DNA from: Heterotrichella gracilis
Taxonomy: Eukaryota; Sar; Xanthophyceae; Tribonematales; Xanthonemataceae
DNA: 64,000 nucleotides
NCBI GenBank assembly: GCA_032358255.1
Contig: JAULBX010027605.1
Location: forward strand, 150,110-214,109
Direction: 5' to 3'
Positions 1,983 to 62,988 of the stretch are shown piece after piece (positions within the stretch are counted from its first letter, which is position 1; every line of letters starts with the position of its first letter). The notes under the pieces were generated by a model. The model was not told the origin of the DNA. It ran no database searches and saw nothing but the letters and a program-made list of their open reading frames with translations. The position numbers were made by a program, and so were the translations under genes.

Positions 1983-3639
1983 CTAAATCTTTGGTTTCCA
2001 CACAAGCTCCGCCGGCGGCTTGCGCTGCGAGCGCATTGCCAAAATTGTGTTTGCAGAAGAGTCCACCTGCCACACGCTGGCGGCCCAGGTCTCGGGGTGG
2101 TGCGCCTTGTAGGCAGGGCTCAGGATGACGGGACCCTGCAGGAAAGGAGGGTTTTTACTAATTTTCCCTGAAGGTTTTGAATCCCTAAACCCTAAACCCA
2201 AACCCGAGGCGCTGATATACCCCAGCGGGGCACTGAAAATTACGGACCAAACACACACCCAAACCATAACCTAAACCCTGAACCTGACCCCAGGCAGCGC
2301 ACCTGCAGGGTGTGCAGCAGCGGCGGCTTCCGGCGCCAAAATAGCCCAGTCAACGACACCAAGAACCCTAACCAAAACCCTAGCATGAACCCAAGTGGAT
2401 GCACCTGCAGGGACTGCAGCAGTGAACACACATCAACACTAACCAAACCCAAGGGGTGTATAGAAAGAGATCGCTTTCTTTATAGCCCTTGCCTAAACCC
2501 ATAAACCTAATCCCAAAAGGGCGCACCTGCAGGGTCTGCAGCAGCGGCGGCTCCCGGCGCCAGATTGCCGAATCAAACACCCCGCTAGGAGTGGTGAGGT
2601 CAGCGCGCATGCAGAGCACGTCATCCTTGGAGGGCGGCCCATTACCCCCCACCACCACCGAGCCCATGGCGTGGTACCCGGTGGGTGGCACGGGGATCCA
2701 CAGCGTGGCTGCGGGGATTTCGTTTGTGCGCCAAATGAGCGTGAATTCTACTGGGGGCTTGAACATGGGCGGACTGCCGTCCTGTGGGGGGTGGTGTACG
2801 GGGCGGGGTGGGTGCATGCAGTGGGCAGGGGGAGGGGTGGGTGAATGCAGTGCGGGTATGGGGCAGGGGATGGGTGGGGTGATCGCAAGAACAACAGGGA
2901 GGAGAAGAGGCGAAAGTACAGACGAGAAAATATACTAAATTATTTGTTAACACTTCCCTTAAACCCTTAAACAAAAGTATTTAAAATTGCCTTGGCATCC
3001 ACACATTTTTAAGATGTAATTCTGCTTGTCAAACCATACACTAGGCTCTTCGCCTCACCTCCCGTGCCTCCTCCCAGCACACACTCTAGGGTTGGTGGCC
3101 CCACTACTTAAAACCCTAAACCTTCTATGCAAAACCCTGCCCTAGGGTCTTCCCCTCACCTCCCCCGCCTCCTCCGAATCATCCCAGCACACATTTTGAG
3201 GTTGGCCCCTTACCCTAAACCCTCTATCCCAAACCCTATTGAAATCTTCCCCTCACATCCTGCGCCTCCGAGGCGTCCAAGTACACATTTTTAGGTTGGC
3301 CTCTAACCCTAAACCCTCCTTCCCAAACCCTACACAGGGACTTTGCCTCACCTCCCGCACCTCCTCCGAGTCATCCCAGTACACAGGCACAGGCGCCTGA
3401 GGCCCCTCGTAGCCCAGCACCACCACATCCCCCACCGCCTTATACCCCTTGGGTCCCACAGGGCGCCAGAAGCTGACCGGGTGCTGCCCAGGAGCCCCCG
3501 TGGCGTACCACAGGCTCTCGTAGAGGCCGGAGGGGGTGGTGGGTGGGGGGCGCGGGTGGGGGGCGGCACGGCCCTGCCAGCTGGATGGTCGGCGCGCTCT
3601 TGCGCGCGCCATGGGCTCGATGTAGTACTTGTTGCGCAC
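1983..3639 (-). other. VPS13: VPS13 exons 63-65: C-terminal Vps62-like block
   Basis: Exons: 3,352-3,639; 2,527-2,781; 1,983-2,135, all phase 0. Two more W-x-P-x-x-P-x-G-Y modules: VSFWRPVGPKGYKAVGDVVV and ATLWIPVPPTGYHAMGSVVV, the second followed by LCMRADLTTPSGVFDSAIW. The last exon continues the same fold (WAASVWQVDSSANTILAMRS). So the same module type occurs both in mid-protein and at the extreme C-terminus. The short final exon is supported by in-frame joining and a stop 17 codons after the module's last strand. Confidence 0.85.
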
Positions 3640-6600
3640 CTGCACAGGGGGGTGAATGGTGAAACCGTTAGGGAACGCGGGGGATGGGGGTAACCACTAC
3701 AACCTTATGGGGACCCGTAAAAATCCTTGCCCTTGCGCGTGCCAGGGGCTCGACGTAGTACTTGTTGCACAGGGGGGAGAAACCCCTAGGAGACCCATGG
3801 AAACCCTAAGCAGGGGAGCTCACGCCCAGATTCTCACCAGGCTTTTTTGTACTACTTGTTGCGCAGCTGCAGAGGGGGGGGAGGGGCATCCCATACAGAG
3901 GGCGCAAACCCTCACTATACGCAAACTCGCACTGGGGGCGAACACCCTCAGAAATCCCACGAAAACCCTAAACATGGGGCCGCAAACCCTCAACACACCC
4001 TCCTAAAACCTGCCAAACCCCCCTCTCCCCCCACACCACCACCACAAAACCCCTTCCCCGTCCCCCATCCCCCCACGCACCGCCATGGCGATCCGCTTCA
4101 TGTCCTCCGCCTGCGCCCACCCAGTGTGGCATTGCACCAGGTGGCCCAGCGGCTCCTCCTCACCCACACCCACAGCACCCCTCCGGTGCACCACCAGCGC
4201 GCTGGGTGGGTCTACATGCGGGTCGAGCCACTTTGGCTCGAGTACCAGCAGGTCCTCCCAGTGGACCAGCCAGCGCAGCTCGCGGGCAGGGGGGACGTCG
4301 GCGATGGGCACGCCTGGGGAGGGGAGTTGGGTGTGTGGGTTCAAGGTGGTACAGAAAACAGTGGGTTTGTACATATAGTGCCAAGTTCCAATTAAGGTTT
4401 CATGGTACGTCCAGTGCTGCAAGGGCCAGGGTATTTTCTATGTTGTACAGAGCAAGCTCGCAAAATCTAAACAAATTACATATCCCCCTCCAAGTCCCAC
4501 TCCCCCTCTCACCCCTCCCTGCCCCCCCACCTTGCTCCGCCTGCCGCTGCATGGCCTCAAAGCCAGGCGCCAGCACCATGACCAGGCCCCTGTTGCATAT
4601 TATAACCACCTTGTCCTCGGGCAGCAGCATGTGATCCTCATATGCGTACTCCGTCTCCTGGCGCCCAGTGAGCTTGTCGATCACGCTGGGTGCCATGGGC
4701 GAGGAGAGGAGGGAGGTGTGGAGCAGGGCCTGGCCAAGCTCCTGGATGCGCACCTGCAAGGGGTGTGGAGGAGTTAGGAGGGGAGGGATGGGTGGTGCTG
4801 GTGTAAAGAAGTGGGGGGAGGGCAGGGTGGAATATGTGGATTCAGTTGCCTATCAACCAGTCCGCATGGTCGTGTAAAGGTTTTGGGGCCATGGGTGAGG
4901 AAAGGAGGGAGGTGTGGAGGAGGGCCTGGCCCAGCTCCTGGATGCGCACCTGCAAGGGGTGGGGGGTGGGGGGTGGGGCAAAAACGGGAAGGAATTTTCA
5001 GGCAATTTTACAGTGTGCAGCGGGGCCTGGCCCACCTTCTGGATGCGAACCTGCAAGGGGGGGAAGTGGAGGGTGGGGCAAAAACGGGGAGGGAAGGTGT
5101 GAGAAAGGCCTGGCCCAGCTCTTGGATGCGCGCTCAAAAGGCGACAAAGATGGGGGTGGTGGTGATGGTGCAAGGGGGAGAAATGCAGCGAGTAGGAGAG
5201 CATGGATGCACATTGCATGGGGCATGGAGGTGTGTGTAGGGGAGTAAAGAGGGGGGAGGGGATGGGGAGAAGAGCAGTAAGGGTGCAGGAGGGGGTAGCT
5301 GCCCAGTATGCCGAAGGCTGTTTTGTAAGCCCACCCAGCCCAGCTCGTGCCTGCAGAGTGACACTAAACATGACCACCACCACAACCCCCCCAGCTGCAC
5401 CACCCACCTCCGCATCCCCCGCCAGTGGGGTCAGCTTCCTGTCCCCCTCAATCACACGCGGCAGGCGCTGGCGTGTGCGCACCGCCCCCGGCTTTGTTCG
5501 ACTGACGCTCACCCCCTCTAGGGTTGTGCTCACCATGTCCAGCATGCCGCTGATGGGGTGCGCGCCAAACCCTACAACACCCTTGCCGATACCCTCCACG
5601 AAACCTGCAGGTGGCGGGAGAAGGGGCGGGAGGTGGGGCGAGCCAGTTGAAAAGATACAACTATGGGAAAGAACGAGATTTTCTACAACATTTCTACAAA
5701 CATTTTTTCACATACTGCGCATGTGACGGTGCGCGCGTGTGGCACAGCATAGCCATTGGGTTGGCTGCTGGGGCACTCATGACGATGCAATTCTAGTTGC
5801 TATGAAGTGCGCGCCGGCTATTGGAGTCCGTTCAAGTCCCCAGATGCGCTCAGACTGTGCCAAACAACCAGGTGGTGTATGCCATGGCAGCATGTGCTCC
5901 GTGGCGATGGTTTGTTTATGGTTGCCCGCCTCTGTCACCACAGCGGCTTCACACTTCCTCGCCTAGACCCTAAACCCTAATGTGGGGTTCCATAATGCAG
6001 TGCATGCTGAGCCTCCCACCCACCCCATACCCCCCACCCACCCCACCCTCACCTAGCGCCCCCTTCTGCTTGGCCCCCTCCCAGGGCCTGAGCACCACCC
6101 CCGTCACCCCCTGCAGCACCCCCTTGCCCAGGGCCCCCGCCCCCTCCATCAGCCCCTCCTTCACGTCGCCGATCTGGCGCCGAGCAATCTCCTGCTTGCG
6201 CGCCTCGCTGTACCTGGGGGGGCAGGGGTTGAGATTAGGATTAAGGGCTAAGTTGACTTGCTGCAGCTAGGGTTTAGGTTTAGGGTTGATGTGGGCGGCG
6301 CGCAATGTCCTGCTTGCGAGCCTGGCTGTACGTGTGGGGGTAGGGTAACAGTAGGGTTTTAGAAAATGCTGGGGAGCAGGGGGGCACGGAGCATAGCATA
6401 TAATGCAATGCAATACGTTTGCACCGACTCCTTCTGTTGTATTCTAATGGTCGATCAATCATATGTACATCTCACAGGGTTTTCTATATTATCTGCAGGC
6501 GTTCCAGCAGTGCAGTCAGCTGACAAGCCATCCTTGCACTGCACACACGCAGGATTCCTTTTGGGTCATAAGCTTTATTTTCTTGAATTGTACGGATAAT

Positions 6601-9600
6601 CCCAGCCTGTGTGGCCAGGTCCTCTCCCATCGATCCCATCCCCTCCCCTCCCCGCCCCACCCCACCCCCCCTTCACGCACCCCTTGTCGCTCGCAATGGC
6701 CGCCAGGCCCGCCGACGCCAGGCCAAACAGCTTGGAGGACCCCCCGAAAATGCCGAAATTGCGCACCAGCCCAAAGGCGGCCCCCAGGAGCTGCCCCTGC
6801 ACCTCGCGCCCCACCGCACGCACAAACACGCTGCGCATCATGGTCTGGCCAACCATCTCAAAGCCCCGCAGCCGCACGGGCGCCGCCTCGAAGCTGGCCA
6901 CGTCCAGTCCCATGGAGAGTACCCCGCCTGCAAGGGTTTAGGGTTTAGGCAGGGAGACATGACAGCTGGACAGAGAGATAACATTTTATGCATTCGTTAA
7001 CAGAAAACCCCACATAGTCTAAAGAATGCCAGCTGTAATTCATGCAATAAGGTTTCAGAATGCATGGAGAATAGGTGGGTAGGCGGGGTGCGATACATCC
7101 AGGCCCATTGACGGCCCGCCTGCCAAGGGTTTATGGACTAGGTAGACGCCCATGCAGGGTTTGTGCATGTACTGGGTTTTCACGTACGATAGGCTTTTCA
7201 TGCCTCCCCAAAATTTTCATCATTATAGAGAGTTTCACGCTTGTAAACAGTGTTGTAGTTTACTCCCTGTCTCCCCCTCCGCACCTGCCCATCGTGGCCT
7301 GGACATTGGATCGGACTGGAATGACACCGATGCAAGCAGCTCAGAAACTGAAAGCAAGCCAACCTGCACCAGGGGGGGGATTTTATGAACAGCACATGGG
7401 GATGGCCCAAAAGTTGGTGCAGCTGGTACATCCCCCCAGTGGCCTATGGCAAGAAGTTGCTGTGGCGGACACCCATCATTCTGGGATTCTGTGATGCAAC
7501 TGGGCATCGCTGGTACAGGCCTTGCAGTCATTATGGCTGGCAAGGCAGTAATATATTATGAGTTGCAATTTGAAAAGTGTGTTCCACTGAACACCCTCTG
7601 ATCATACAGCAGCATGGTTTCCCCCCAACCCCCCACCCACCTGTAGCGGCATGTCCACCGCCGCCTGCGCATGGCTCTCTCCCCCTGACCCATGGCTCAG
7701 CCTGCCAAGGTCCAGGCGCTGCACCACATCCATCAGCCGCCAGATCACGCTCTCGCTCAACGCAATCTGCGCAAGGAGGATCTAGGGTTTAGGGTTTTGC
7801 GATGGGGACAGGTACAGCGGGTGTGATGGGTGGATGAGATGCTGGAAACAGGTGGGTGTGAGAGTAAAGGCATGGCAAGCCAATTGACACAGGTGTGCCA
7901 TGCAAAAAGCCATTTGTTTACTTATACCATCCGTCCGGTTCACCCCAATGCGTGCGGTCCATGCGAAACCTACCAACTAATTACTTAAGAGGTACCCATG
8001 GGCCGCACCTGCAGCACCCCGTTTGTCTTTGCCGCCACAAAGGGCACGTACAGCCTGCTGCGCGCACCCCCTGGCTGCTGCCTGAGGCTGAGTGTGACCA
8101 TGGGGAGCTCGTCACCGTCAAGGCCACGGGGGAGGTCAAGGGGAGCGACGATCACGGGGTACCTGCGGGGAGGGCAAAGTACAGGGTCGAAGGAGAGATC
8201 ACTTTCATGAGTTGCCTGTGCCCCTTGTCAGGGTGCGGCGGGCTGTTCATTACTATTCTGTGATGATCCTTGTGTGAGGGAACCATGGGCAGTTCCCCAG
8301 ATATCCGCCCCCTCACCTTCTGCCCCACAGCCTGTCATCCAGTAGCATCTCATCACCGCCAGGCACACGCACGGGGCTGAGCGCACCTATCCTTGCAAAC
8401 CCCCAGAGAAACCCTAGCACCAACCCTAGGGTTTGCCGCCCCTCACCTTGTGCCCCACAGCATGTCATGCAGCTGGTACATAACAGGTGGCGGTGCGCTC
8501 CGGCCCCCAGAAAAAAACCCTACCAACATCCCTAGGGTTTCTTTCCCCTCACCTCATGCCCCACAGCATGTCGTCCAGCTGGTACCTCCTCGCCGCCAGG
8601 CGCACGCAGGTGGCAATGCGCTTGGGCCCCAGTAAAACCTATAAACCCCTACCAAAAATCCTAGGGTTTGCCGCCCCTCACCTCGTTCCCCACAGCATGT
8701 TGTCCAGCTGGTACCGCTTCACTGCCAGGCGCACGCAGGTGGCTGAGCGCAAATGTCCTAGGAAGACCACCAGTAAAACCCTACCAACAACCCTAGGGTA
8801 TCTTTCCCCTCACCTTGTGCCCCACAGCATGCCCCCCAGCTGGTACCTCTTTACAACATGACCAGCAAAACCCTATACTAGGGTTTGTTCCCCCTCACCT
8901 CGTGCCCCACAGCATGTTGTCCAGCTGGTACCGCTTCACCGCCAGGCGCACACACCTTTCCTCAAAAACCCTACCCACAAACCCTAGAGTTATTTCCCCT
9001 CACCTTGTGCCCCACAGCATGTCATCCAGCTGGTACCGCTTCACCGCCAGGCGCACACACGTGGCGGTGCGCTCCGGCCCCACCCCCGCAGCCACACTCA
9101 GCTGCGCACCCGACACAGTCAGCAGCAGCACCTCCTGGGGCAGCGCATCCACTATGGACAGCTCAAAGCCTGCCAGGTGGAGGTCCAGGCTGGTGGCTCC
9201 CTGGCCCGGGGCGAGCTTGATGACGCCGCTCATGGCGGAGGCGCCTGCGATGGGGGGTGGGGGGGTGGGGGGTACTGAGGGGATGATGGCAAGGGTGGGG
9301 AGGTAGTAGGGGATATGATGATGGCGTCAGTGGAAGCTAGGGGTTGTCTAGGGTTTGCTGGGGTTAGAATTCAAGCGAATGACGGCCAAGCGAAGGACGG
9401 CTAATGTGTAGGATTTTTACAGGCAACAAAACAATTAAGTTCATATCAATTGTTGGGGTTGGAATACATGGTGTTCAAGAGTTATGTTCTTAGGGTTAAA
9501 AGTGCGTGCCTCACCTGGCAGTACCCTGACTATCCTGTCTACTCCTCCCCTGCCCAGCAGCGCCGCCCCTGCCCCCGGCACCCCACCCACACCGGTGGGG

Positions 9601-12600: not shown

Positions 12601-15600
12601 CAGGATTGAAAAATAGGGTTTTGTGTGCTTACCTTTGCCCCGCTGCTGCCCCCCCTGGCCTGACCTGCATGATCTGCATGGGCAGGGGGGTGCGGTTGCT
12701 CACCACCAGGTGGGGCTCAAGGCGCAGAACCTGCAGGAAGGGGGAAGCCAGTGTTTCAACTTGCAGCCTACATAGTCACATCTGAGTATTTCGTAGGGTT
12801 TATTCACATCTGCCTTTTCCTGTGGCAATGGAGGCCTTCACACAGGTTGAAGATTACGACCACGAAGCCTGTGCAGTGCAAGGATATGCTATGTAAAACC
12901 ATGGGGCTAATTATTCTTCCCACGGCCCAGTGCCAAGCCCTAACACCTTTTTATAATCCCCATATTTTCCGTCCCAAATCCCCGCACCTGCACCCTCCCA
13001 AACCCTGCTCGGGGCAGCTCCAGCCGCGCCACCACCTCCACCTGAAGATTAAGCCCCGGCACATTTGCGCGAATCAGTACAGGGCGGCTGTCCTGCAGGT
13101 TACCCTCCATGCCCCCCACACCCCCACCGGTAGATGTGGATGCATCCTCGGATCCATCCCCATCCGCATCCCCAACTGTGTCCAGGGCCAAGGGGGATGT
13201 CCAGCCGGAGCCGCCCACCTGCGCAGGGGAGGGAACGGGGGAGTGGGTGGGCAGGGTGAAAGTGAAATACAGGCATAAACGGGGGTTGGTGGGGTGTAAT
13301 GAATCCCACGATTCTGTCAATCCAGGGTTTGATCCATGGTACTGTCCAACCTCTTTGATGCATGCGAGAGACGTACAACAAAACCATGAGAAATGGATAG
13401 AAAACAACTGAACCTGAATGCGTTTCCTATACATACCGATAACCATGACCAAGGCTGTACACAATGACAGGCATGCTACAGGAATTTTAGTTATTGCTGC
13501 TGTTTCCTCCTACCCTGAGCCGCACGCCAAAGTGTTTTCCCCCTTGCATGAAGCTGGCCATGCTGGCCACAGGGAAGGACATCATGTGCAGGCTGTGGGG
13601 AGGGACCTGCTCCACACCGCACCCCTCGCGCATGGGCGGGTTGGCCACCGATGCATACACCACAGGCAGCGCGGTCGCCTCGCTGATCGCCGCCTCCATG
13701 CTGGCGGCAGGCACGGGAGTCGCAGCCCCGCCCGCGTCCCCGCGCCGCTGGGGCGCGGGGCAGGGGACCAGCATCGCGCTGAGGGGATTTGGAGTGGCGT
13801 TTGTCATCCACAGGGGGACAAAGAGCTCGACCACCATGGGGACGCCAGAAGCCACCGCCATCCCCGAATCTAATTTGTCGCGGGTGGCTTCAGAGAGCAT
13901 CCAGGCCCCCAGGAAAATATCGCGATTGATGAAAATGTCCAGGGGGCATGAGCCGCCGGGGCGCACCACGGTGAATTTGTCTGGGAGCTGGGGGGTCTGG
14001 TCCACCCCCGCGCGGTGGCTGCGGGGACCAGGCAAGGGAGGGTGTCAATCCCAGGAAATGCAGAGGGAATTACGATTTATCTTTTGAGTTCTCTAATTTT
14101 TTAAGCGCATCTTGATAACACATCACTGATGCGGCTGCACTGTTGAACCCCCCACCCCCCTCATCCCCAGCACCATAGCAGTGTTATTCTTCCCACTGCC
14201 CCCAACTACTGGATGCCGCCGCTTGGGTGCATGCATATGACCACCAAAATTACCTCTCTTTAGCCCCACAGCACAATTATTACCCCCTCCGCCAACCCCA
14301 CCCACCCACCTGAGGTATCCGTATGAGATGGGTATGGGCTCATCCTGCGCAAAGGTGTATCCCTCGGGGTAGAACTGCAGGGCGATGGCTGCGCGCATGT
14401 CTGCAGTCAGGACCTGCACGCTACCACCCGCGCACAGCCGACCGCTCTGGCGCAGGAGCAGGCCCCTGGGGGAAAGAAAAACCCTGATTTTAGGGTTTTG
14501 GACCCCAGCGGGATTGTGGCGCTGGGTGGAATAGCGGGTTGCTTTGTGCAGTTGGGTTAAGTGAGTGATGCATGTCAGAAGATGCTGGGTGGAGAAGCAA
14601 TCATGTGACCCACACCCCCAAAACCCACTGTGGAAACCAAAACCCTTGATTAGGGTTTTCATAACCTAATTGCTTGCATCAGGGGCCTGGCTTGCCGCCA
14701 TGTGGGTGAGGTGGAGGTGAGTGGGTAATGAGCGTGGGGAGGGTTTGCGAAAGGAGCAGCAGCTGTTTAGGGTTTAGGGTTGAGACCACGCAGATACACA
14801 ACCCTCCCTGGCGCAACTGGCCCATCTGCCTCTACCCAGTAGTGCGCACGCAGTGGTTTGAGCACGCGTTTTGAGTGCATTACTGGACAATGCAGAGGAG
14901 CAAGTTGCACCAGGGAGGGTTGTGTACCTGCGTGGTCAATGCAGGCAGTGTTTTGGTCACGCACGTGCGTGCACTCAGAATTCCTGCTCCAAAACCCTAC
15001 TTTGTGCCTTCTTCCTCCTCCCGTATCAGGTAGTGTGCGGCTATCAATAGAGCATTCGCACTAAACCCCAAAGCCCTACCTTGTCCCCACGTCCTTCTCC
15101 CAGACGAGGTAGTGCGCAGCCACCGGCAGCGCGTTGCGCAGCACCAGGGGAGGCGCGGCAACTATCCTCCAGTCCTGCAGCGGCCCCCCCTGGTCCGCCC
15201 CCACCCCGTAGGTGTCCACGTCCACAGTCAGCGACAGCCAGGTGGCGCTGCCCGCCAGCTGTGCGCCTGTGGGTGCGCCGCTGCTGATCTCAACGGGGGC
15301 GCCTGTGATTGAAGAATGGGTGTCAAGTGTGTGATCATTTCATCCAGTACCACAAGCTGCAAGTAAGATGGATGCATTTAAATGAAAAGGGTACATCAGA
15401 AGTGGGTCCAGTCGATGGAAGTACAGAAGTGGGTGGGGGATGAAGCACAGCCGATTCACGCTCATTGGTGGCCCACACCTGCCAGCAGTTGCTAAATCAC
15501 CCTTGTGGTGAAAGAGAACTAGGGTTTGGTGCAGGGTTTGCCACCGTGTGACCGTCGCACCGCCCTCAACACTAGCTAGGATCCAGCGGCGCCGCCGCCA

Positions 15601-45846: not shown

Positions 45847-45998
45847 TATACCGCTATACTGTGACAGGGGAGGGACATGGAAGTAGGAAACTCACAGACT
45901 TGCACAGCTTGCCAAGTGGCTGAAGCACTCTAGCAAGCTGTGCTAGTCTCTGAGTTTCCTTGTACCATCCCCCCCCCCTGTCACAGTACAGCGGTATA
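45847..45998. repeat. Long fold-back (hairpin) element
   Basis: The outer arms CCGCTATACTGTGACAGGGG (45,851-45,870) and CCCCTGTCACAGTACAGCGG (about 45,975-45,994) match at 19 of 20 positions as inverted repeats. The inner arms AGGAAACTCACAGACTTGCA (45,885-45,904) and the complement of 45,942-45,960 also pair. Arms are about 68 nt with a loop of about 15 nt. Candidate MITE or hairpin small-RNA precursor. It sits about 150 bp past the stop of the F-box gene and could fall in its 3' UTR. Confidence 0.78.
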
Positions 45999-46146
45999 CT
46001 AGTAGGAGCCCTTGGCAGCATTGTGTCTTCCTCGCTCTCAAACACAGTTGTGAGGGTGAGAACACTGCTGAAAGCCTTCACATTTGCCACCCTTGTGCAG
46101 CGTTTGACCCCCCTGTATAGCTTCCGCCTGTTCATCAACTTGCGCC

Positions 46147-51080: not shown

Positions 51081-51757
51081 GGAGAAGTTCCCTCACACAA
51101 CACTGCACAGAAAAGTAAAGAAAGAGCACCCAGTTGCCATTAAACTATTGAATACCACCTCACGCTCAGTGGCATGATTTTGTTGGCCTGGCAGGTAGAC
51201 CATTATAGTCAACGGTGGGCGTAACGGGGAGTGAAAATTATAGTCCCGTTGGCAATGGGCCATGATTCATTATGAACTCAGAGCCCTGTTGTGATTGGAC
51301 CCTTGAGCAGTGGGAAAGCAGTGGGAAATGCAGGCGTGGGCGTGCAGGGAGAGCCTATGGCGCAGGGCCACCAGCACCCCTCCCACATTTACAGCAGCTG
51401 CACCTTGACCCAGGGCAGGGCTGGCACCCCTTCTCTTGCCGCGTACGCGCCCAACAGATAGTTGTTCGACGATCTACCCTTGCCATCTATTTTTGTTGTT
51501 GAATCCCAGCCATATCGCGGTCGCTGGTGTCGCTGCCCTCAAACTGAACGTGTTTTACAGCGGCATGGTGACATGGCCAGGCATTGACAATATAAGTGCA
51601 ATTATTTCATCACCGACCCTGCAACGATACACGTGTTTGTTTACCACAACCCATCCCCCCATCCCCAATGCCCACCACCTGCCCACTGCTTAGACACCCT
51701 CCTATGGCATGATAGCCCGTCCTTCGAACCCCCACCCCATCCTCCCCAAGTCCCAAG
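51081..51757. other. ALIX 3' flank / upstream of small gene B
   Basis: It holds the ALIX 3' UTR and the promoter of copy B. The half nearest ALIX aligns with 48,040-48,510 in unit A. A TGTAA motif (minus strand) at 51,555-51,559 is about 200 bp past the ALIX stop. I see no other gene. Confidence 0.55.
51555..51559 (-). terminator. Candidate TGTAA poly(A) signal for ALIX
   Basis: Green algae commonly use UGUAA as polyadenylation signal. This is the first match after the ALIX stop codon. A five-base match alone is weak evidence. Confidence 0.3.
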
Positions 51758-54700
51758 CTACGTTTTCCCCCACAGCTTGTTCCACCCCTCCGACCCCCCT
51801 TGTGCCGGCGGCGGCGGCTGTTGTTGCTGCTGTGGCGGTGGTGGTGGCTGCTGCTGCTGCCCGTAATACTGGTATTGGTTGTACCCCGGTGGGGGCGGGG
51901 GCGCATAGCCCTGCTGTTGGCTGTATGCCGGGGCAGGCGGGGGTGGGGGCTGGTTCGAATAGCCTGGGTATTGCTGCGAGTACTGCTGGTTGTACCCCGG
52001 GTATGCCTGCTGCTGTGGGGGCTGCTGCTGCTGCTGGTACCCACCATACCCGCCCGGGTAGGGCGCGGGGTACTGCGGCGGGGGAGGGGGCTGGTAGGGC
52101 GCGTGGGAGTACACCCCCTGCTGCGGTGGGGGGTGGGAGGGCTGTGAGGCCAGGGATGCCGCTGCCAGCTGCGCCTGTGCCCTCTCCCTTGCGTCCTTGT
52201 CCGCTTTCTCCCTCGCCTCCTTTTCGGAGCGTGCCTGGTCGTCCGCCTGGCGCTGGAAGTCCTCAAGCAGGTCGTCCCTGCAAGGGGGACAGGGCGGGAT
52301 GAGCATTGGGGATTTTGCGCATGGAGACGTGCAAAATTTACCTTTTCCAATTTCATTTCCCCCCCCTACAAATGTATCACAATGCAAGGCGCCTGCGCCA
52401 GCACCCACGTATGCCATGTTATTGTGGCCAAGCAAATGGGGGAACAGTCACCAAACCTACCACACACTATGGTACAGTGGAAATGCATGATCGCCCAGGT
52501 GCAATTGCCCATTGCCTGTAATGAAAAATGGAAGCAACCGTTCCCACGCAATGCCAGGTGTGCAGCTAGAGTATATTCAAACCCACTATGCAGCAAAACC
52601 ACACTCATCTCAGTCGCTGGCTGCTACAAGGATGCCGTCGCGCATGGTACCCCACCCCACCCCACCCCCCACCGCCCTTACCTCTGTATTCTTCTGGTGA
52701 GCACGTAGTCCCCGCACTGCTGTCCCAGGGTTGCGATTGCCTCCTGCAGGCTTGAGTAGAACCTCAGCCCCTCGCTCAGCCCGTCTCGGATCTCGCGCAT
52801 GGAGGCGAGCTGGGAGCGGATGCCCTGGGAGGCGCCCTGAGGGAGAAGGAGAGGGGAGGGAAGGTTAAGAAAGTGTCAATTAATTAGCTAATTTATTCAA
52901 CTTTAATTTACGCGCTGGGAGGCACCCTGGGCGGAGAAAGTGCAAGTCCACACCGTCCACACCACACCACCGCCACCACACCACCAACCTGTGGCCCTAG
53001 GCACAACCAAACCGCTCGCCACCACCCCTTCCACACCGCCGCACCCAATTCCCCACTTTGACCGCCCCCAAACCCGCCCACCCCCCCAACCCCTCACCTC
53101 GCACGCCCGCTTCCACTCATTCCAGCCAAACACGCTCTTGTACAGCGCCTGGTGCGCGCCGATCACAGCCAGCAGCTCGGCCTGCTTGGCCAAGTTGGCG
53201 GCCGCATCCGCCTGCAGGGGTGCATACTTGCGCAGCTCCTCCTTGAAGAGGGTGTCGTGGGAGTCTGCGCTGGACATGAGCTTGGGGAGCACGTTGTCGC
53301 TGTTCTTCATGTCCTATGGGGGGTGGGGGTGTAGGGTGTAGGGTCTGGGGTTTACGGTTTAGGGGCACGACTTTGGGGTTTTAGGGTTTAGGGTTTCAGA
53401 GTCGGGGGTTTGAAGGCCGGGGACATGAGCTTTAGGAGCACGTTGTCACTGTCCGTCACGTGGTGGGGGTGGTATGGTGTGGCATAGTTGTGTGGGTGTT
53501 GACACAAGTAAGGGTGTGGGAGGGAAATATCTCCTATTTCCACCACCTCCAACGCCGAACTCTCCGCCAACACCTGGCTGAAATTCGCAGGATTTAGGTT
53601 GAGGGTTTTATGCCTTTGTTTAGGGTATAGAGTCCCGTAGCTCACCTTGAGGGCCTCTTCTAGTGCCGCCCTCTCCGCAGACACCTGGCTGATTGCTTCC
53701 AGACCCTGGCGTAGGGTGGCCACGATGGTGGCGGGCTCGTGATCGCCGGTGGACAGGATGGGGGCCTGGAAGAGTGGGGGGTGGGAGGTGAGGGTGCCAG
53801 GATGGTGGTGTGTCGGTTGTGGTGGTGCCATGCGGTTGGGTTCACTGTTGACTAGAAGGTGGGTAACAGAATACAGGGAAACTACGCGCCAATTGCATGC
53901 AACAAGAGGCAGCCCTTAGGCACAGCAAATTCTGCAACCCAGAAGGTGTGTGAATCCACACAACTGCCCCTCCCACGGAAACCACCACGTGTACCGACCA
54001 CCCCCCACCAGCACACCACACACATGGCCCGCACCTGCATGCGCGGCATCTGCGTGGCCGCAGCGTCCGGCGTGAGTGCCGCAAATGTGGACGCGCTATC
54101 CATCAGGCGCTGTGCCAGGCGCTGGTCGCTGTCGGCAGCAGCGGCAAGGTTCTGCCTGCAGGGGTTTGGGGGTTTAGGGTTGAGGTTTGAGCCCATATCA
54201 GATCTTTGGGTAGTGAAGGTGCCACTTCAGGCAGTCATGGAGCGGTGTGCGGCGATATATGATATGCACGCCAGCTGGCATGCAGACATCTACATCTAGG
54301 GGATCCAAATGTGCACCCCTATCACAGACCACCACCGCCACCACGAACCCACCCACCCCGCCTGTATCCCGCCACCGTATCTCTCATCTCCACACAGTCC
54401 ACCAGCACCCACCACCACCCCACTGCACCCTACCACCGCATCTCTCAACACACACGATCCACCATGCCCCACGCCACCTACCCACCACCACCACCACCAC
54501 CACACACCTGTACCCGCCAACGCCCCCCCCCGACCACCCACCACCACCACCAGCACCACCCACCTGTACCCCGCCACCTTGTCCCTCAGGTTGCGAGTCA
54601 GCCCTGAGCTGGCCGGCCTGGACCACCTGGACCCAAACCGCCCCCTCAGCTCCGCATCCTCCCGGGCCTCGTTGTCCAGCACCTCCTGGCAGCGCTCAAG

Positions 54701-57700
54701 CTCAGAGGAGGAAACCTCGCGCAGCTCCTGGGGATTTTAGGGTTTAGGGTTTAGAGATTGGGGGGGGAAGGGGTGGTAAAGGAGGGGTGCAGTATGGACA
54801 TCATGCATTGCAGGGATCTCGTGTACATCCTGGGTGGGTGGAATGTGGGCTGGAGGGTTGGGAGTCGGGTGCCACCTACACATTGTGTGCACCTCATGAG
54901 GCAAACACCTCACACAGCTCAAAATGGAGTGGAGAGAAGCAGAGTGACCGTCATCATTGAATGCGCAATGCTCTGCACATGCACGACTCACAAATCCCCA
55001 CCCCCCACCCCCTCACCTTGATCTGCTGCACCATGTCCTGCAGATGCGCCAGGCCGCCCCCGTCCTCAATATCCTCAAGGTCGCGGCGCACAGCCTCAGG
55101 CAGGGAGGCGCAGCTGGTGCTGTCCAGGGCCTGGAGGTAATGGGGGTGTTGATAAAAATGTCAGGGCAGGGGAGGGGAGCAATGCGAGCATAGTGTGCCA
55201 GGTAGCCTAAGCACATGTGTGCAGAAAGCGCCAAGCTGCTTCTGCAAAGGTGAGCACCTAGTTTGTGGTGCGGTGGGCTCAGGATGGAAGCCACGCAGCC
55301 CTTGGCCAAACGCGCACCGTGAGGAACCACATAGCCATATGCACACAGCCACACACGAAACCTCTTCCTGCTGGTTGTCGTCAGCCTCTGTCTACCCCAT
55401 GCACCCCAACCTCCGCCCCCACATCAGGAATACCCCCACCCCCCGCCTCACGCCACCCCAAGTTACCAACAACACCCGCATTCCCACCCCGTACCATATA
55501 GCCACACGCACATACGAAACCTCTCCTGCTCGAAATCCTCCCCACCCACATCCACCCACAGACACCACCCACGCCACCCACATCCCCACCCACCTGCAGG
55601 CAGTCCGGCAGGTCCCACTCCCTGAGCCTCAGCCTTGCCTCGTCACTGGCCGCCTCCAGCTGAGTGAGCTGTGTGCGGTACAGGGTGTCAACCATGTCGG
55701 TGTACTTGGACAGGGCCTTGGCGCTGCAAGGGGGGTGGGGGTTGTAGGGGTGAGGTGGGGATCGCGGGGAGGTAATGGAGAGAGGCCTGATTTTGTATGT
55801 TCCAGCAGGGGGTCTGTGCAGCGTGCAGTGCCAGAACCCTCCAGGGTTTCCGCCTTGCTAGTGGCAAATGTGGGGTTGTAGGGAATGGAAGGCGGTACAC
55901 GCATACAATGCTTCTGCCGGAAACACCATTGGGCTATGAGCAAAGCGCGAACATTTTTTCGGAGAGGTTCCCCAAACACAAAACACCATTACGATTTGCC
56001 TCTAGGGTCTCACCTTGTGTCGGGGATGACCGAGTGGAACAGCCCCTCCGCCACGCCATTAGGGTTTGCCATTAGGGTTTGCCGCTAGGGTTTCACCTTG
56101 TGTCGGGTATGACCGAGTGGAACAGCCCCTCCGCCACGCCATTAGGGTTTGCCATTAGGGTTTGCCATTAGGGTCTTACCTTGTGTCAGGGATGACCGAG
56201 TGGAACAGCCCCTCCGCAGCGCCATCCAGCTCAGTGGGGGGGGTGGGCTTCACAAGGAGGGCACCGCTGATATCAGGCAAGTCGGCGGCAGCGGGGATGC
56301 GCTGCAGGTACACCGTGGAGTTCTCCTTTTCCGCCTTGGGCAGTGTGGTTGAGATGGTGTTGTCGAGGCGCGCGCAGTGGTCCGCCAGCTCCTTGCCCAT
56401 TGTTTTTATGCTCCCCTTGAGCACGTCCAGGGCTGCGCGGGCTTGCTGTGGGCGGGGCGGGGGGGGGGAGGGAGGTGGTGAGCGTTGGGATTGGCAGGCG
56501 GGGCCATGAGAAAGAAAGTCCTTTGAAGATGATTTGAGGAAGGTAAAATACAGAGCAATAACGTCGAGGTCACATGTTCCCTTCATGACCACACCGTGAA
56601 TCCATTGTTTTCATTCATGTATATAATGTTTTTTTATTTGATGTTGTACTTGTTTATATTGGCCTGCATGTCTGACACAGGGACAGTGGAGATCTCCCAT
56701 AAAGTTGCCTCGGAAAGGCCAGGCAGGCACATGGGCCAATCAAGACCTTGCAAAGGCAACTTTGGAAGAAGAACTACGCTGTGCCCGCAACAGGTATGCA
56801 GGCCGTGGACGAAGTGCTGAGGCCTATGGGCGCTGCGCTCTTTAGGGTTTTAGGGTCCACTGTGTTGGCACCCAGCAGCTGGTAGCCTAAGGTGCAGCTG
56901 CAGTCCCCATTGCGTGCATGTCTGCTGCAGCTAGTGCATTGTGAGTGTACGTGAAAACCACACTTGTTACCTCATATTTTGGTATTCAGTCCTAAATGAT
57001 GCTTGTCAGTGAACAGTAAGGCCAGCTCCACATGCTCTCATCATGCACAGCGGATGGTTTGCCATTGCGTGTTCCATGCCATGCCGCGGCAGCCTGCAAT
57101 GCCAGCTGCGCATGCTGCGTTTTGAAGATGCCCCCATGGTCCCCCACCCGCCCCCGCCCCACTATGCGCAGCGCACTCGCTCCCAACCCCTCCCGTTGTG
57201 ATCACGCAGCCCTCTGTGCGGATGCATGGACCAACCATGACCATGTCCCGACATCACAACCTCATGCCCCAACACAAGCCACGTTCACATGCTCCCCCCC
57301 CACCACCACACCACTCACCCCATCACCCCCGCGCCCCACCTTGAGCCGCGCGATCTGCGTAGCACACTCCACCTGCCCCCCACATCCATCCCCCACATCC
57401 TACAGCAGTGTCTTGCCGCCGCGGCGGCTGGCCCACTAAGGCCACACCTACTTGCCAACACCCACCCCCCTGCACCCCCACACCACCAAACCCCACCAAA
57501 CCCCACCAAAAACCCCGTGCCCTACCTTGAGCCGCGCGATCTGCGTCGCGCACTCCTCCTGGTGCCCCGCGTCCACCCCCGCCTGCACAAACGCCTCCAC
57601 CTCATACAGCTGCGCCTTGTTGGTGCTGTGGCTGGACCAGGACTTGTCAAAGTGGGTGGACAAGGGGGGGCGGTCCAGGCAGCGCACCACGTCGCTGTAG

Positions 57701-60091
57701 TACATGGAAACCTGCTTGGCAATCCTGCGGAGGGAGGGGAGGTTTGAGTGGATGGAGGAGGTGAGGGGATGGGGATGCAGTGGATGGTAGAAGGGGTTGC
57801 GCCTCAGGAACAGTTTTCATGGTTTGGGCTGCGGGGAGTGCATGTGCATGCGCCTCCATATCTCATGAGGGGAACACCAACAGGGCACATAAATGTTTCG
57901 CTGAGCCACATCACACCCGGAGCAGGTGTTGCGCCTACAGCCTTCCACCCCCACAGCTTGCCATACCCTCCAGTCATCCCTAACCTAAACCCTTAGTTCA
58001 TTACCCCCGGGCCCTCTTCCCCTCCTCCCTTGCGATGATGGTAGCCACCGAAAACACCCCAGCCCCAATCCCTGGCCACCTTCCATTGCGGACACCATCC
58101 ACTGCCCCCACCCCTGTCAAAAAGCCCTTGCGCGCGTCCCTGGCTGCCTACTTGCCTGCCTACTTGTTCACTTCTGCAACAGCCCACTGGACTTCACCTC
58201 AGTGGCCTGCCAACTCCACTCCACCCACACACACACCTCCCCTGAATGGGTCATACCCTCCCCCCATCCCATCCTTACCAGCAAGAACAGCCCCACCACC
58301 ACCTCCCACACACCCCACCTTGCCAGAATGCCCGCGCCCTTCTTGTCCTTCACCATTAATTGATTGTAAATAAATGCACTTAATTACCTTGCCAGGATGC
58401 CCGCGCTCTTCTTGTCCTTGACCGCCTTCTCATACACGCACTCCTGCGCCTGTGCCAGCATCAGGCGTTCCACCATGGCCGCGCACTCTGGCGAGGTGTC
58501 CACCGGGCGGGGGTTTTCCACCTTGAGGGATGCCACCTCGGCAAGGTAGTTGTAGCTGCCAGCGGCCTCCTGCAGTAGGCGGGTGCGAGTGGCGTGAGGT
58601 GACGGCGTGTGGGGGTTGCGATGTCGGCAGGTTGGTGGGATGGGGTTTGGGGTTGGGTGCATGGCAACAACAAAACTGCACTGCCTGCCTTTGTCAGCGC
58701 CATGAACCCAGCACAGCGCACCCCGTGCCCAAAAGGGAAAATGCGCAAGGTAAGTGAGGAGGGCGAACAGTCTAGATGGGTTAAGAACGTGCAGTGGGAT
58801 GCATCCACTCCTGGTTTTCGCTCCCAAACGCCAGCCCCATCCCACCTCTGTCAGTAACGTCCCTTGTGGTGCAAAGTATGCCACAGGGCAGCTACTGTTA
58901 ACTAAACCAAAGTGAAACAAGCTTGACACCTCGCAACCCAGAGGCATGCCCCGCCCACCTGGAACCACTTTGCCGCCTCCTTTATCCCCGCCTCCGACTT
59001 CTTGTCCACCTACAACTCCAGCTGGCTCTCCACCGCCGCCAGGTTAAACCATGCAGAATACACAGTGCCAGATTGCAAACCTGTTTTGCCCTGCTTGTGC
59101 TGACTCCTACACCCTAGCTGCACCGCTGTAAAGGTTACAATTAACCATCCCAGAAGCATCCCCGCACCCACCTGGAACCACTTTGCCGCCTCCTTGATCC
59201 CCGCGTCCGAGTTCCTGTCCGCCTGCAGCCCCAGCTGGCTCTCCACCGCCGCCAGGTTGAACAGCACGCATGCCTTCTCAAAGTGGATGCTGAACTGCTC
59301 CGAGCGCTTGGTGGGCCTGAAGGCGTCGTACCAGGTGAAGGAGATGGCCACGTTGTCCTTGCCCTTGCTGATGGGGAAGCGGGTCTCCATGGTGGACAGG
59401 GCGGGGTAGTACCTGGGGCAGCGGGGGTGGATGTGGGTTGGCAAAGCGTGAGAGTGAGGTGCCTGTGGCGCCGTGTGTGGTGCTGTGTGTGGTAGTGCGC
59501 GTGTGAGTGGAGAGGTCAGTGTTTGGGTGGTGATTATGGCCGCGTTGCCCTTGCTGTTGCTGATGGGGAAGCGCGTCTCCAAGGCAGACAGGAAGTGGTA
59601 GAACATGGTGGTGGTGGTGGTGCAGGGTGAGAGCGAAGGGTGGAGCTGGCGAGGATGGTGAGAGGTGGGTGGGGTGTATGTGTCAAGAGGTTCCACATAG
59701 AGGAGGTGTGTAGCAAGAGCAAGGTGGTGCAACTCGGTGCAATATCAAGAAAACAAAACATGAGCTTCAGTAAAGTGACTTGAAGCACACAAGGTGCCAT
59801 TATCAGGCGTGCATATGGGCATAGTCCCATCCACCCATCCCAACAAGAAAACCACCCACACGCTGAGCACCGGACGTGCACATACTTTTTCAAGTTGTCC
59901 CTGACAGTGGTGAGTGCCCCTGTGCCTCCCGCCACCGTTGCCCGCAGCTGCTGGACGGTGGCCAGGTCGTCTGTGGCATCTTGCACCTGGAAGTCGCTGT
60001 AGTGCTGGGCGATGTATTTGGACACAGGGCCCTTGATGTCCACCTCATCCGTCTTCTTGCAGTGAACAGCCAGCATGATGTTGCCCCCCAT
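51758..60091 (-). CDS. ALIX: ALIX, BRO1-domain ESCRT adaptor, 13 exons
   Basis: 877 residues, close to the usual ~870 of ALIX. Exons: 59,886-60,091; 59,172-59,412; 58,388-58,569; 57,526-57,724; 56,180-56,445; 55,594-55,723; 55,017-55,130; 54,564-54,727; 54,035-54,155; 53,646-53,765; 53,098-53,313; 52,682-52,836; 51,758-52,277; all phases agree. BRO1 domain (about 1-365): MLAVHCKKTDEVDIKGPVSK, YYPALSTMETRFPIS, FEKACVLFNLAAVESQL, the tail KAEKENSTVYLQRIP and ALLVKPTPP. V domain (about 366-705) is helical (LRLREWDLPDCLQ, FGWNEWKRACE). Last exon: charged coiled stretch, then a Pro/Gln/Tyr-rich tail with repeated YPGY and PPPPP ending in WNKLWGKT. By family it links ESCRT-I/ESCRT-III on endosomes. 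The GTATGT donor after AAA-AA in exon 1 is needed to rebuild the KKYYPAL core. Several introns hold exon-edge copies. Confidence 0.93.
53419..53588 (-). repeat. Copies of ALIX exon 11 5' part and exon 10 3' edge
   Basis: At 53,419-53,466, GGACATGAGCTT-AGGAGCAC and GTTGTCACTGTC repeat the start of exon 11. At 53,538-53,588, CTCTCCGCCAACACCTGGCT repeats the end of exon 10 in diverged form. TTTAGGG repeats (53,340-53,395) stand beside the first. Confidence 0.72.
56001..56139 (-). repeat. Two copies of ALIX exon 5 3' edge
   Basis: CACCTTGTGTCGGG-ATGACC then GAGTGGAACAGCCCCTCCGC occurs at 56,001-56,057 and 56,086-56,139 before the genuine edge at 56,175-56,220. Joints consist of ATTAGGGTTTGCC units repeated two or three times. 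Confidence 0.87.
57340..57385 (-). repeat. Copy of ALIX exon 4 3' edge
   Basis: CCTTGAGCCGCGCGATCTGC then GT-GC-CACTCC-CCTG repeats the genuine edge at 57,525-57,570. Confidence 0.8.
58317..58356 (-). repeat. Copy of ALIX exon 3 3' edge
   Basis: ACCTTGCCAGAATGCCCGCG then C-CTTCTTGTCCTT repeats the genuine edge at 58,386-58,425, only about 70 bp away. A TTAATTGATTGTAAATAAAT spacer lies between them. Confidence 0.83.
58950..59605 (-). repeat. Copies of both edges of ALIX exon 2
   Basis: Downstream copy 58,950-59,050 repeats about 100 bp of the exon 2 end, including the donor (CACCTGGAACCACTTTGCCG; CAGCTGGCTCTCCACCGCCG). Upstream copy at about 59,540-59,605 repeats its start (TGCTGATGGGGAAGCG, GTCTCCA-GG-GGACAGG-like). 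The downstream copy is long enough to be mistaken for an alternative exon. Confidence 0.82.
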
Positions 60092-60761: not shown

Positions 60762-62988
60762 ATGGCGGTAGAAGCCGCAGACTCGGTCCCCGTGCCGCCG
60801 CAGCACATGCCGCCGCAGGTGTACGACTTCCGGCGGGCTGAGCTGGGCCCCAAGGGTTACAAGGAGCGCACCAAGCGCAAGCTTGACGAGTATGAAGAGC
60901 AGGTGCGGCCTATGTGCATGCATATGCTTTCCTGTGGCGCAAACCGAGGCGAAGCTTCTCTTTTAGTTCCTGTATATGTGGGCGTTCCTTGGTGGGCGGG
61001 TGGCTCCCTGCTTGGCGTGCGCTACACACTTTGTAAAGACCAAGTGGAAGCACTGAAAGCAGGCGGTGTTTGCAAACCCTGTACAGGGGTAAACCCACCC
61101 TGCAGCCCTGCTCAACCACCACAACGCCACCGTCTACATGCACTCACGCATGCCCACCCAACGGCATGTTGTTTCCAGCACACAAAAAACGCCCAATTGC
61201 CAGCATATTGACATGGACCCGCATGTCACCGCCATGCCGTTGTCATCCTTCACCCCCTTCACCCCCTTCACCCCCTGCGCCAGGTTGCTCAGGAGGCTGT
61301 GGAGGAGCGCGTACAGACGGGGGCAGGCACGCACGCCATGAAGAAGACGAAGCACAACACGATAGGAGTGGGAACGGTGCGTGCCGGTGGCGACACCCAA
61401 ACCCTAAAACTCTGAACCCTACACGGGGGCAGGCCCTGCTGTTGACACCCAAAGCCTTGGCATCACTTACCACCTTCACATTGCCTGCCAAGCTTCCTTT
61501 GCAAACCTCAGACAGCATTCTCCTCCCATACACGCTGCCAATCTGTTGGATGGCAGGTATCCTGCTAGTTAAATGATTAACTAATTGGATCCCGCTACTC
61601 CCCCACCCCTGCCCAATAGGCGGCTGCAATGCATGATGTCCTTTTCAACCTGTCAACTTACAATTCCCTGCACCCTGCCTCACAGGCTTGCAATTGCTCC
61701 CACAAGGTGTTTGGCTCTCCCTCCCTGGCCTCAACCTCATTCCCAAAACCCAGAACCCTAAACCCTAAACCCTACCTTCCATCCGCAGGCTCCAACCGGT
61801 CCTGGAAGGTTTCCGGCGAGCCGCCCCTGGCCTCAACCTCAATTCCTGCACCCAAAACCCTGCACCCAAAACCCTGAACCCAAAACCCTTGCACCCCACC
61901 CTACAGGCCTCCAACCGGTCCTGGAAGGTGTCCGGCGAGCCGCCTCGTCGCCGCAAGGCCGCTGTGCCCGCCTTGACCTCCAGCTGGGCCAAGAAGATGA
62001 AGGAGAAGGCGGAGCTGCAGGCGTTCAAGGAGCACAAGGCGGAGGTGAAGGCGGCCAGGGGGGAGAAGCTGGCGGTGAGTGCAGGGGAGGAAGGGGAGGG
62101 GGTCGGGGGAGTCGAGGGAGAGGGCTTGGAAGATGATGGCTGCAGTTGCGATGGAAGGGGGCGGTCGGGGGAATGACTGATGCATGGAGCACCGCCCAGG
62201 CTCCATCTAGTGCTCCTGTGCTGCGTACATATGGAAAAGAGCGGCAGCGCACTGCTTTCGCCATGCGCAGCATCATCGCGACCAGCATTGGCATGCGACA
62301 CCCCGCTAGCCACCATGCTTGCCTGCAATTACCTGTTGGCTAGGATAGATTACACGTTGCTGACTCGTGCATGTGCGCCTCGCATGCATTGTGGCAGAGC
62401 ATGTTGTGCCCGAGAAGCAATCCTGGCAAATAAAACATGCTTTTTATCTCATTTGGGTGTACCGTTTGCCACATTGGCAGCCTTTGCATCAAGCTGTGAA
62501 TGAGGAGATATAGGCAATAGCTCATGGGTTGTTGCAAGGTGCATGACATGTCAGGGTAGCGGTGTCGCCAGGTGCGCCAGGTGTGCCAGCCTGGGGGGGG
62601 TGACCACCACCACCACCTACCACATGCACCTACCACATGCACCATCACACACAGCTCCTGGACACCACCCACCTTCCCACCAACAACCACACCCCTGCCA
62701 CCCACCCTCACACCCTCCCCCATCCTCCACCACCCCACCACCACGACCCCGCCACCCACATCAACCCACCACCACCCACCACCCCTGTGCACCACCACTC
62801 ACCCCCCACCCCCCCCGCAGGCCATCCGCATCCAGCAGGCCGCCGCCAAGGCCCGCAAGGAGGCCTCGCGCATCGCCAGCGCCGTGGTGCAGCCCGTGAG
62901 CACCGCCACCGCCAAGCGCATGATGAAGGACAGGAAGCAGCGCAAGCTGCTGCGCACGGTGGACACAGGCACGGTGGACAAGAGCTGA
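60762..62988 (+). CDS. CGR1: CGR1/CCDC86-like rRNA-processing protein, 4 exons
   Basis: 189 residues in four phase-0 exons: 60,762-60,902; 61,284-61,376; 61,907-62,074; 62,821-62,988 (TGA). The family (yeast Cgr1, human CCDC86) is nucleolar and acts in large-subunit pre-rRNA processing. Seen: the core NRSWKVSGEPPRRRK and TSSWAKKMKEKAELQAFKEH (Cgr1 pattern 'W-K-x-S-x-K-P' followed by 'S-W-x-K-K-M-x-x-R/K'), then a long basic helix (ARKEASRIASAVVQP) and KRMMKDRKQRKLLRTVDT (Cgr1 'K-R-M-x-x-K-Q-x-R'). The N-terminal half (exons 1-2) is weakly conserved, with AMKKTKHNTIGVG. The start is the first ATG, in a purine-containing context (GCGATGG). Confidence 0.88.
61682..61836 (+). repeat. Two copies of CGR1 exon 3 5' edge
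   Basis: Copies at 61,682-61,740 (diverged) and 61,786-61,836 repeat the genuine start and acceptor at 61,902-61,955: CAGGC-TCCAACCGGTCCTG then GAAGGT-TCCGGCGAGCCGCC. ACCCTAAACCCTAAACCCTA lies between the copies (61,755-61,775) and CCAAAACCCTG units follow. This shows the same process on the opposite strand and in an unrelated gene. Confidence 0.87.

What the first reader, a model, noticed from the sequence alone, without database searches (positions are those of the whole stretch)
1983..62988. Introns grow by repeated duplication of exon-intron junctions with telomere-like joints
In at least two dozen introns of VPS13, ALIX and CGR1, the neighbouring exon edge (30-100 bp of coding sequence plus splice site) recurs one to six times inside the intron. 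It is always in direct orientation and next to the exon it came from. Both donor-side and acceptor-side edges are affected, and some exons have both. The joints often contain CCCTAAA/TTTAGGG or head-to-head AACCCTAGGGTTT. Occurrence in three unrelated genes on both strands argues for a genome-wide mutational process, such as template-switch or end-joining repair that adds telomere-like filler. I know of the tandem-duplication model of intron gain, but not of a described system pairing splice-junction duplication with telomere-like filler.
Basis: partly seen in the sequence, partly recalled or inferred. Interest (0 to 1): 0.9.

Follow-up and report, generated by a model that had tools for sequence, protein, structure and literature searches.

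The report
Introns grown by splice-junction duplications
In this photosynthetic eukaryote many introns have grown because short stretches spanning an exon-intron border were copied head-to-tail into the intron, often with telomere-like DNA at the seam, which looks like the trace of a recurrent DNA-repair error that splicing hides from selection.

Summary
With a home-made gene model, 45 of 175 introns hold a direct copy of their own flanking exon edge (window 24/73, other segments 17/67, AAA-gene loci 4/35). Controls are near zero: inverted 1/350 edge tests (low complexity), edges in another intron 2/350, exon interior 0/132. 74 of 85 copies span the splice site. Inferred fillers are telomere-like in 14 of 39, against 2 of 39 outer flanks and 4.4% of control draws. 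Telomere-like tracts of 21 bp or more lie between direct repeats in 43 of 76 cases, single heptamers in 7 of 123. Twenty telomere-like joints taken genome-wide without regard to introns show flanking direct repeats in 7. Most likely mechanism (inferred): staggered break, 3' overhangs filled in, sometimes extended by telomerase, then end-joined into a tandem duplication; junction-spanning events survive because the outer splice site still works. Random duplication plus selection predicts 52-70% junction events; 55 of 61 were seen, so the junction bias is not fully explained. The ingredients are known; their pairing at splice junctions appears to be a new variant.

The parts
8309..8955 (-). six donor-edge copies of VPS13 exon 9004-9244 (exon end + GTGAGGGG + filler), in intron 8163-9003
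8956..8995 (-). telomere-like filler at the first joint; not seen after the outermost copy
2270..2422 (-). two donor-edge copies of exon 2527-2781 (Vps62 domain exon)
3022..3287 (-). three donor-edge copies of exon 3352-3639
3288..3315 (-). filler with telomere-like tract
3729..3904 (-). two acceptor-edge copies of exon 3352-3639 (same exon, other side)
4832..5244 (-). four acceptor-edge copies of exon 4513-4753
6288..6358 (-). acceptor-edge copy of exon 6053-6213; telomere-like filler 6243-6287
15557..15797 (-). donor-edge copies of exon 15844-16229; telomere-like filler 15798-15835
19689..19786 (-). donor-edge copy of exon 19914-20032
20313..20399 (-). donor-edge copy of exon 20466-20609; filler 20400-20437 with a G-type then a C-type tract
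26275..26320 (-). donor-edge copy of exon 26496-26669
27846..28001 (-). two acceptor-edge copies of exon 27341-27761
28716..28824 (-). acceptor-edge copy of exon 28292-28635; telomere-like filler 28654-28715 (highest filler score)
33116..33215 (-). acceptor-edge copy of exon 32707-32983
33686..33840 (-). two acceptor-edge copies of exon 33437-33615
34500..34611 (-). donor-edge copy of exon 34675-34852
36783..36813 (-). donor-edge copy of exon 36855-37001; telomere-like filler 36814-36847
38444..38685 (-). two donor-edge copies of exon 38819-38947
53421..53500 (-). acceptor-edge copy of ALIX exon 53098-53313; telomere-like filler 53356-53420
53543..53581 (-). donor-edge copy of ALIX exon 53646-53765
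54329..54511 (-). two donor-edge copies of ALIX exon 54522-54727
55986..56142 (-). two donor-edge copies of exon 56180-56400
58317..58354 (-). donor-edge copy of ALIX BRO1 exon 58388-58569
58934..59055 (-). donor-edge copy of ALIX BRO1 exon 59172-59412
59536..59642 (-). acceptor-edge copy of the same exon 59172-59412
61661..61836 (+). two acceptor-edge copies of exon 61907-62078 (gene with the weak Cgr1 match); telomere-like filler 61837-61880

Best explanation
Introns in this genome grow by recurrent small tandem duplications, mostly about 50-150 bp, that span a splice junction. SHOWN: the copies are direct, adjacent, diverged, mostly junction-spanning, and do not look maintained as coding sequence; telomere-like sequence is enriched in the seam and mostly absent from the outer flank. 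INFERRED: two nearby nicks on opposite strands near a splice junction give a break with 3' overhangs. The overhangs are filled in (the CST-Pol alpha-primase route known in mammals), sometimes after telomerase has added one to a few TTTAGGG repeats to a 3' end. End joining then leaves A-filler-A. A duplication inside an exon is purged, but one that spans a junction is silent, because the outermost splice site still gives the same mRNA and the copied exon edge becomes intron. Some units then expand further into arrays by later duplication or unequal exchange.
For: Direct against inverted pairs within 1 kb: 121 against 0 in 264 kb. Edge copies at Smith-Waterman score >=20: donor edges 31/175, acceptor edges 21/175; controls reverse complement 0 and 1 of 175, other intron 2 and 0 of 175, donor edge in shuffled intron 0/175, exon interior 0/64 and 0/68. 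74/85 copies span the junction. 65 of 69 indels in exon parts break the frame. After removing the estimated inserted length, introns with copies have median 243 bp, against 284.5 bp for introns without: ordinary introns that grew. Telomere-like filler 14/39 against 4.4% of length-matched control draws and 2/39 outer flanks, Wilcoxon p=1e-5. The share of tracts flanked by direct repeats rises with tract length: 7/123, 16/95, 15/57, 43/76. 20 TTTAGGG..CCCTAAA loci taken genome-wide: 7/20 have own-flank direct repeats at score >=15, against 1 of 380 other-locus pairs, largest own inverted score 10.5, permutation 0/10000. The genome has TTTAGGG arrays at contig starts and a telomerase RNA-binding domain match. 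Published mechanism: PMC8355091 (abstract and introduction read), PMC5730883 (passages).
Against: 25 of 39 scorable fillers are not telomere-like. Joint edges are set by alignment, so filler ends are uncertain by several bases. The predicted order (G-rich then C-rich tract) shows in one phase (200 against 71) but is reversed in another (686 against 1062), where short-spacer dyads dominate; with spacers 6-20 it is roughly 1.8:1 (and an extrapolation), and the strand gradient along introns alone would give about 1.75:1 (hand estimate). In the 264-kb sample mixed tracts run the other way (C then G 11, G then C 5, one mixed), partly because one array repeats its filler. Random duplication plus selection predicts 52% junction events (about 70% if all are old), but 55 of 61 were seen: something more is needed at junctions. 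Filler orientation by side (donor 4 G and 3 C, acceptor 1 G and 6 C) suits G-rich 3' ends but also splicing-driven composition; the ten bases next to fillers are 51% G on the donor side (n=23) but only 33% C on the acceptor side (n=20), so the acceptor side does not bear out G-rich priming. Duplications also occur outside called genes (28 arrays, 1.56 per 10 kb, though missed genes are in there) and a few are exon-exon (3 arrays). No RNA evidence, no second species.
Confidence: 0.55

Rival explanations
1. Replication slippage or unequal exchange makes tandem duplications everywhere. Telomere-like repeats were already in the introns and made them fragile; junction copies are simply those that selection tolerates and that conserved exons keep recognisable.
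For: A simulation shows that junction events should be about half of the visible ones without any targeting. Telomere-like heptamers are also raised in introns without detected copies (1.77 per kb) compared with exons (0.12 per kb) and uncalled DNA (0.74 per kb), and 28 duplication arrays lie outside called genes.
Against: Junction arrays in 55 introns against intron-only arrays in 6, beyond the simulated 52-70%. The telomere-like tract sits at the joint and is mostly absent from the outer flank (14/39 against 2/39); a pre-existing tract inside the duplicated unit would be on both sides.
Confidence: 0.2
2. A short mobile element (introner-like) with telomere-like ends inserts at splice junctions and makes unusually long target-site duplications.
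For: The A-filler-A layout resembles an insertion with a target-site duplication, and telomere-like inverted pairs are abundant genome-wide.
Against: By eye the listed fillers share nothing but telomere-like heptamers, and they range from 0 to 156 bp. Duplicated segments range widely in length. Exon edges do not match other introns (2/175 and 0/175).
Confidence: 0.1
3. The copies are functional: alternative or decoy splice sites, or cassette exons kept by selection.
For: GT is kept in 41 of 46 aligned donor copies and AG in 17 of 23 acceptor copies. The donor GT bases match in 88 of 94 cases against 591 of 738 for intron bases +3 to +20. Mismatches are more frequent at third codon positions (0.176 against 0.111 and 0.116, p=1e-6).
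Against: 65 of 69 indels in exon parts break the frame. GT identity (0.94) is within the range of the ten neighbouring exon positions (0.81-0.96), as expected when the reference side is constrained, and the third-position excess is expected from synonymous change in the real exon.
Confidence: 0.07
4. Assembly artefact.
For: Tandem copies are a usual assembly problem.
Against: Copies differ from their exon (mean identity 0.87 exon part, 0.81 intron part in the 60 copies with enough of both), and edge copies recur on several contigs.
Confidence: 0.02

Closest known systems
Small tandem duplications at staggered breaks (CST-Pol alpha fill-in then NHEJ; PMC8355091 abstract and introduction read, PMC5730883 passages read; rice and Arabidopsis work cited there, not read)
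   Same: Direct, adjacent duplications of tens of bases, with inserts and repeated rounds.
   Different: In what I read the events were induced by Cas9 nickases or inferred from natural insertions; here they concentrate at splice junctions and often carry telomere-like filler.
Telomerase-made interstitial telomeric sequences at mammalian breaks (Nergadze 2007, PMC2246262; passages read)
   Same: The organism's own telomere repeat at what look like repaired breaks, mostly absent from the outer flank.
   Different: In rodents and primates only 6 of 130 and 4 of 25 insertions are listed with a duplication of flanking sequence (table passage); here 43 of 76 long tracts are flanked by direct repeats, and tracts are short and degenerate.
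[quoted passage not shown]
   Same: A tandem duplication crossing an intron-exon boundary turns formerly exonic sequence into intron.
   Different: There a new intron arises, one case; here existing introns lengthen, in 45 of 175 tested.
Introners and introner-like elements (recalled, no paper read)
   Same: Genome-wide reshaping of introns.
   Different: No shared element sequence seen; each copy comes from the neighbouring exon.

Membership tests
End-joining tandem duplications at staggered breaks | Direct, head-to-tail, local | tested here: met
   121 direct and 0 inverted pairs within 1 kb in 264 kb
End-joining tandem duplications at staggered breaks | Size of tens of bases to under about 200, variable ends | tested here: met
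   extents
End-joining tandem duplications at staggered breaks | Needs Ku and Pol alpha/CST; arises from 3' overhangs | not testable with these tools
   needs genetics in the living alga
Telomerase-made interstitial telomeric insertions | Inserted repeat equals the organism's telomere repeat | tested here: met
   (TTTAGGG)5 arrays, in the reverse strand, at the start of several contigs such as C70, C140, C609, C717, C770; telomerase RBD match
Telomerase-made interstitial telomeric insertions | Repeat arrived with the event (absent from the empty site) | tested here: inconclusive
   outer flank mostly lacks it (2/39 against 14/39), but no true empty site from a relative was available
Telomerase-made interstitial telomeric insertions | Break-end bases in register with the repeat | not tested
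   filler ends are uncertain by several bases; too few cases
Intron gain by tandem duplication | The duplication creates a new intron | tested here: not met
   copies lie in introns whose remaining length is ordinary (median 243 against 284.5 bp)
Introners | Same element sequence in many introns | tested here: not met
   edge against another intron 2/175 and 0/175; listed fillers share only heptamers, judged by eye

The most novel reading that the evidence does not exclude
Telomerase and its fill-in partner act as a recurrent mutator at transcribed exon-intron borders in this lineage: 3' ends near splice junctions prime telomeric repeats at breaks, and the resulting junction duplications are a main source of intron length.
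Probability: 0.25. Interest if true: 0.85.

Novelty: new variant of a known kind. Interest (0 to 1): 0.68.

Why it matters
It gives a concrete, countable source of intron length: in the 45 introns with copies an estimated 10,176 of 22,354 bp is inserted by junction duplication. Because one copy (the exon) is preserved by selection, age and breakpoints of each event can be estimated, so the genome is a natural record of repair outcomes. It links telomerase, break repair and gene structure in a way that can be tested in a laboratory alga, and it warns gene predictors: my own models called 12 copy-like exons.

Tried and rejected
Gene models: an unsupervised start failed (28 introns only); seeding with AAA-family loci worked, and hard stops plus forcing 2000-38900 to the minus gene strand filled in VPS13. 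The models miss genes (S01 got none) and the VPS13 N-terminal stretch near 41371-41574 that Pfam sees, so 'intergenic' contains missed introns. Checked by hand: 11 of the 12 best Pfam stretches listed for the window overlap a predicted exon.

Fusion-orientation idea: I first read 200 against 71 as proof that both break ends were extended by telomerase. The second phase (686 against 1062) showed a separate class of AAACCCT-N3-5-AGGGTTT dyads; with spacers 6-20 the excess is mild (316, against roughly 576 extrapolated from 42 of the 50 places listed). I no longer count it as strong support.

Short ancestral introns as the reason for the junction excess: rejected as sole reason, since the remaining length is ordinary. 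Functional copies: see rivals. Literature: in ten searches no listed title or abstract start pairs splice-junction duplication with telomere-like filler. I saw only the top 2 to 20 rows of each, and the library lacks most subscription papers.

Rows dropped before counts: exons under 35 bp, 12 copy-like exons (8 of the 45 introns with copies contain one), introns under 60 bp (4 of 179), 17 of 25 AAA loci (no predicted introns, overlapping another, or doubtful), one intron over 1000 bp, fillers under 10 bp. In one search masked N letters matched each other; one search repeats it with N never matching.
Full report
SETTING. The window is contig C508:150110-214109 of a 68.5-Mb, 903-contig genome. 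The genome has 43 matches to the chlorophyll a/b-binding family, a telomerase RNA-binding domain match and CCCTAAA arrays at the very start of several contigs, so TTTAGGG is its telomere repeat. A green alga is my inference. Window genes: VPS13 (minus strand), ALIX (minus), and a gene with a weak Cgr1 match (plus).

OBSERVATION. Self-BLAST finds 48 direct repeat pairs within 1 kb in the window and none inverted. Ten 20-kb segments from ten other contigs give 73 direct and 0 inverted, very unevenly (0 to 35 each), and segments rich in the heptamer are rich in duplications. The clearest array lies in the intron at 8163-9003: six further copies of the end of exon 9004-9244 with its donor, most followed by filler such as AAACCCTAGGG..GGTAGGGTTTT. 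After the sixth copy the intron goes on as GTGAGGGGGCGG without that filler.

EXON-EDGE TEST. I built an HMM gene finder. In 175 introns of at least 60 bp, the last 60 bp of the upstream exon match their own intron (score 20 or more) in 31, and the first 60 bp of the downstream exon in 21. Controls: reverse complement 0 and 1 (the one is a CCACCACC-type repeat), a different intron of similar length 2 and 0, donor edge in shuffled intron 0, exon interior 140-200 bp from the junction 0 of 64 and 0 of 68. By place: window 24 of 73 introns, other segments 17 of 67, AAA loci 4 of 35. Before counting I removed 12 exons that looked like copies of a neighbour; 8 of the 45 introns with copies hold such a removed exon, so their count leans on that step. 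74 of 85 copies cross the splice junction.

NATURE OF THE COPIES. Exon parts average 0.87 and intron parts 0.81 identity in the 60 copies with at least 15 columns of both. 65 of 69 indels in exon parts break the frame, so most are not working exons. Mismatches are commoner at third codon positions (0.176 against 0.111 and 0.116), and donor GT bases match better (88/94) than intron bases +3 to +20 (591/738); both can follow from constraint on the real exon and splice site. Introns with copies have median length 456 bp, and 243 bp once the estimated insertions are removed, against 284.5 bp for introns without copies: ordinary introns that grew.

FILLER. I define filler as what lies between copies but is not shared with the outer flank. 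Of 39 fillers of at least 10 bp, 14 are telomere-like (score 9 or more), against 4.4% of control draws from introns without copies and 2 of 39 outer flanks. Looking from the other side, telomere-like tracts in 264 kb are flanked by direct repeats in 81 of 351 cases and by inverted repeats in 0. The share grows with tract length: 7/123, 16/95, 15/57, 43/76. Random intron positions give 98/600 direct and 0 inverted, random uncalled positions 33/647 and 6, so single heptamers are at background. Tracts within one array are not independent. As an outside check I took the first 20 distinct TTTAGGG-N0-20-CCCTAAA loci of the list (200 matches genome-wide). Seven have direct repeats on both sides of the tract (score 15 or more), against 1 of 380 cross-locus pairs; the largest own inverted score is 10.5 and no permutation of 10,000 reached the mean. 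Thirteen of the 20 show none at that score.

WHY JUNCTIONS. A duplication across a junction is silent because the outer site still splices; one inside an exon is not. A simulation with the observed lengths, intron templates without repeats, and exons evolving at 0.3 of the neutral rate predicts 52% of detected events at junctions (about 70% if all are old). Observed by one uniform self-alignment: 55 introns with junction arrays, 6 with intron-only arrays, and 8 exon-exon pairs in 7 introns, of 174. By BLAST: 56 edge arrays, 6 intron-only, 3 exon-exon, 28 outside called genes. So selection and detection explain much, not all. Possible extra causes: G-rich intron starts and C-rich intron ends (G/(G+C) falls from 0.66 to 0.33 along introns), R-loops, or underestimated intron turnover. 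The ten bases before donor-side fillers are 51% G, which would suit telomerase priming, but the ten after acceptor-side fillers are only 33% C.

MECHANISM. The A-filler-A structure with organism-type telomeric repeats is what staggered-break fill-in plus end joining would leave if telomerase sometimes reached the 3' end first. CST, which with Pol alpha fills in telomere ends, has been shown to drive small tandem duplications at 3' overhangs in mammalian cells (PMC8355091, abstract and introduction). Telomerase use at breaks in mammals is argued in PMC2246262, where a flanking duplication is listed for 6 of 130 insertions in rodents and 4 of 25 in primates (passage read). The break, telomerase and CST steps are inferred here.

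LIMITS. One genome, no annotation, no RNA, no relatives.

Noticed in passing
genome-wide; in the window e.g. around 8870-8884 and 14642-14656: A dyad AAACCCT-N3-5-AGGGTTT, mode 5 bp: 1062 matches with spacer 0-20 (reversed-pattern control 6), 316 with spacer 6-20; of 50 places listed, spacer 5 in 24 and 3-5 in 36. Looks like a dimer binding site or hairpin, separate from the filler.
   Followed up: partly
window 46003-49469 and 49737-52860: A diverged direct tandem pair of about 3.5 kb (pieces 63-78% identical); the second copy overlaps predicted exons 51758-52277 and 52682-52836. Probably a local gene duplication.
   Followed up: no
G000 C48:118817-118851: A perfect (TTTAGGG)5 array inside a contig (contig length 137,713); other arrays may be contig ends, as lengths were not shown.
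   Followed up: no
L007+L008 (segment S04, C11:60001-80000): The densest sampled region: 35 direct pairs and 3.25 heptamers per kb in 20 kb, against no pairs in segments S03 and S07. The cause of this unevenness is unknown.
   Followed up: no
all 179 introns modelled: Strong strand gradient along introns: G/(G+C) 0.66, 0.56, 0.47, 0.33 by quarter.
   Followed up: partly
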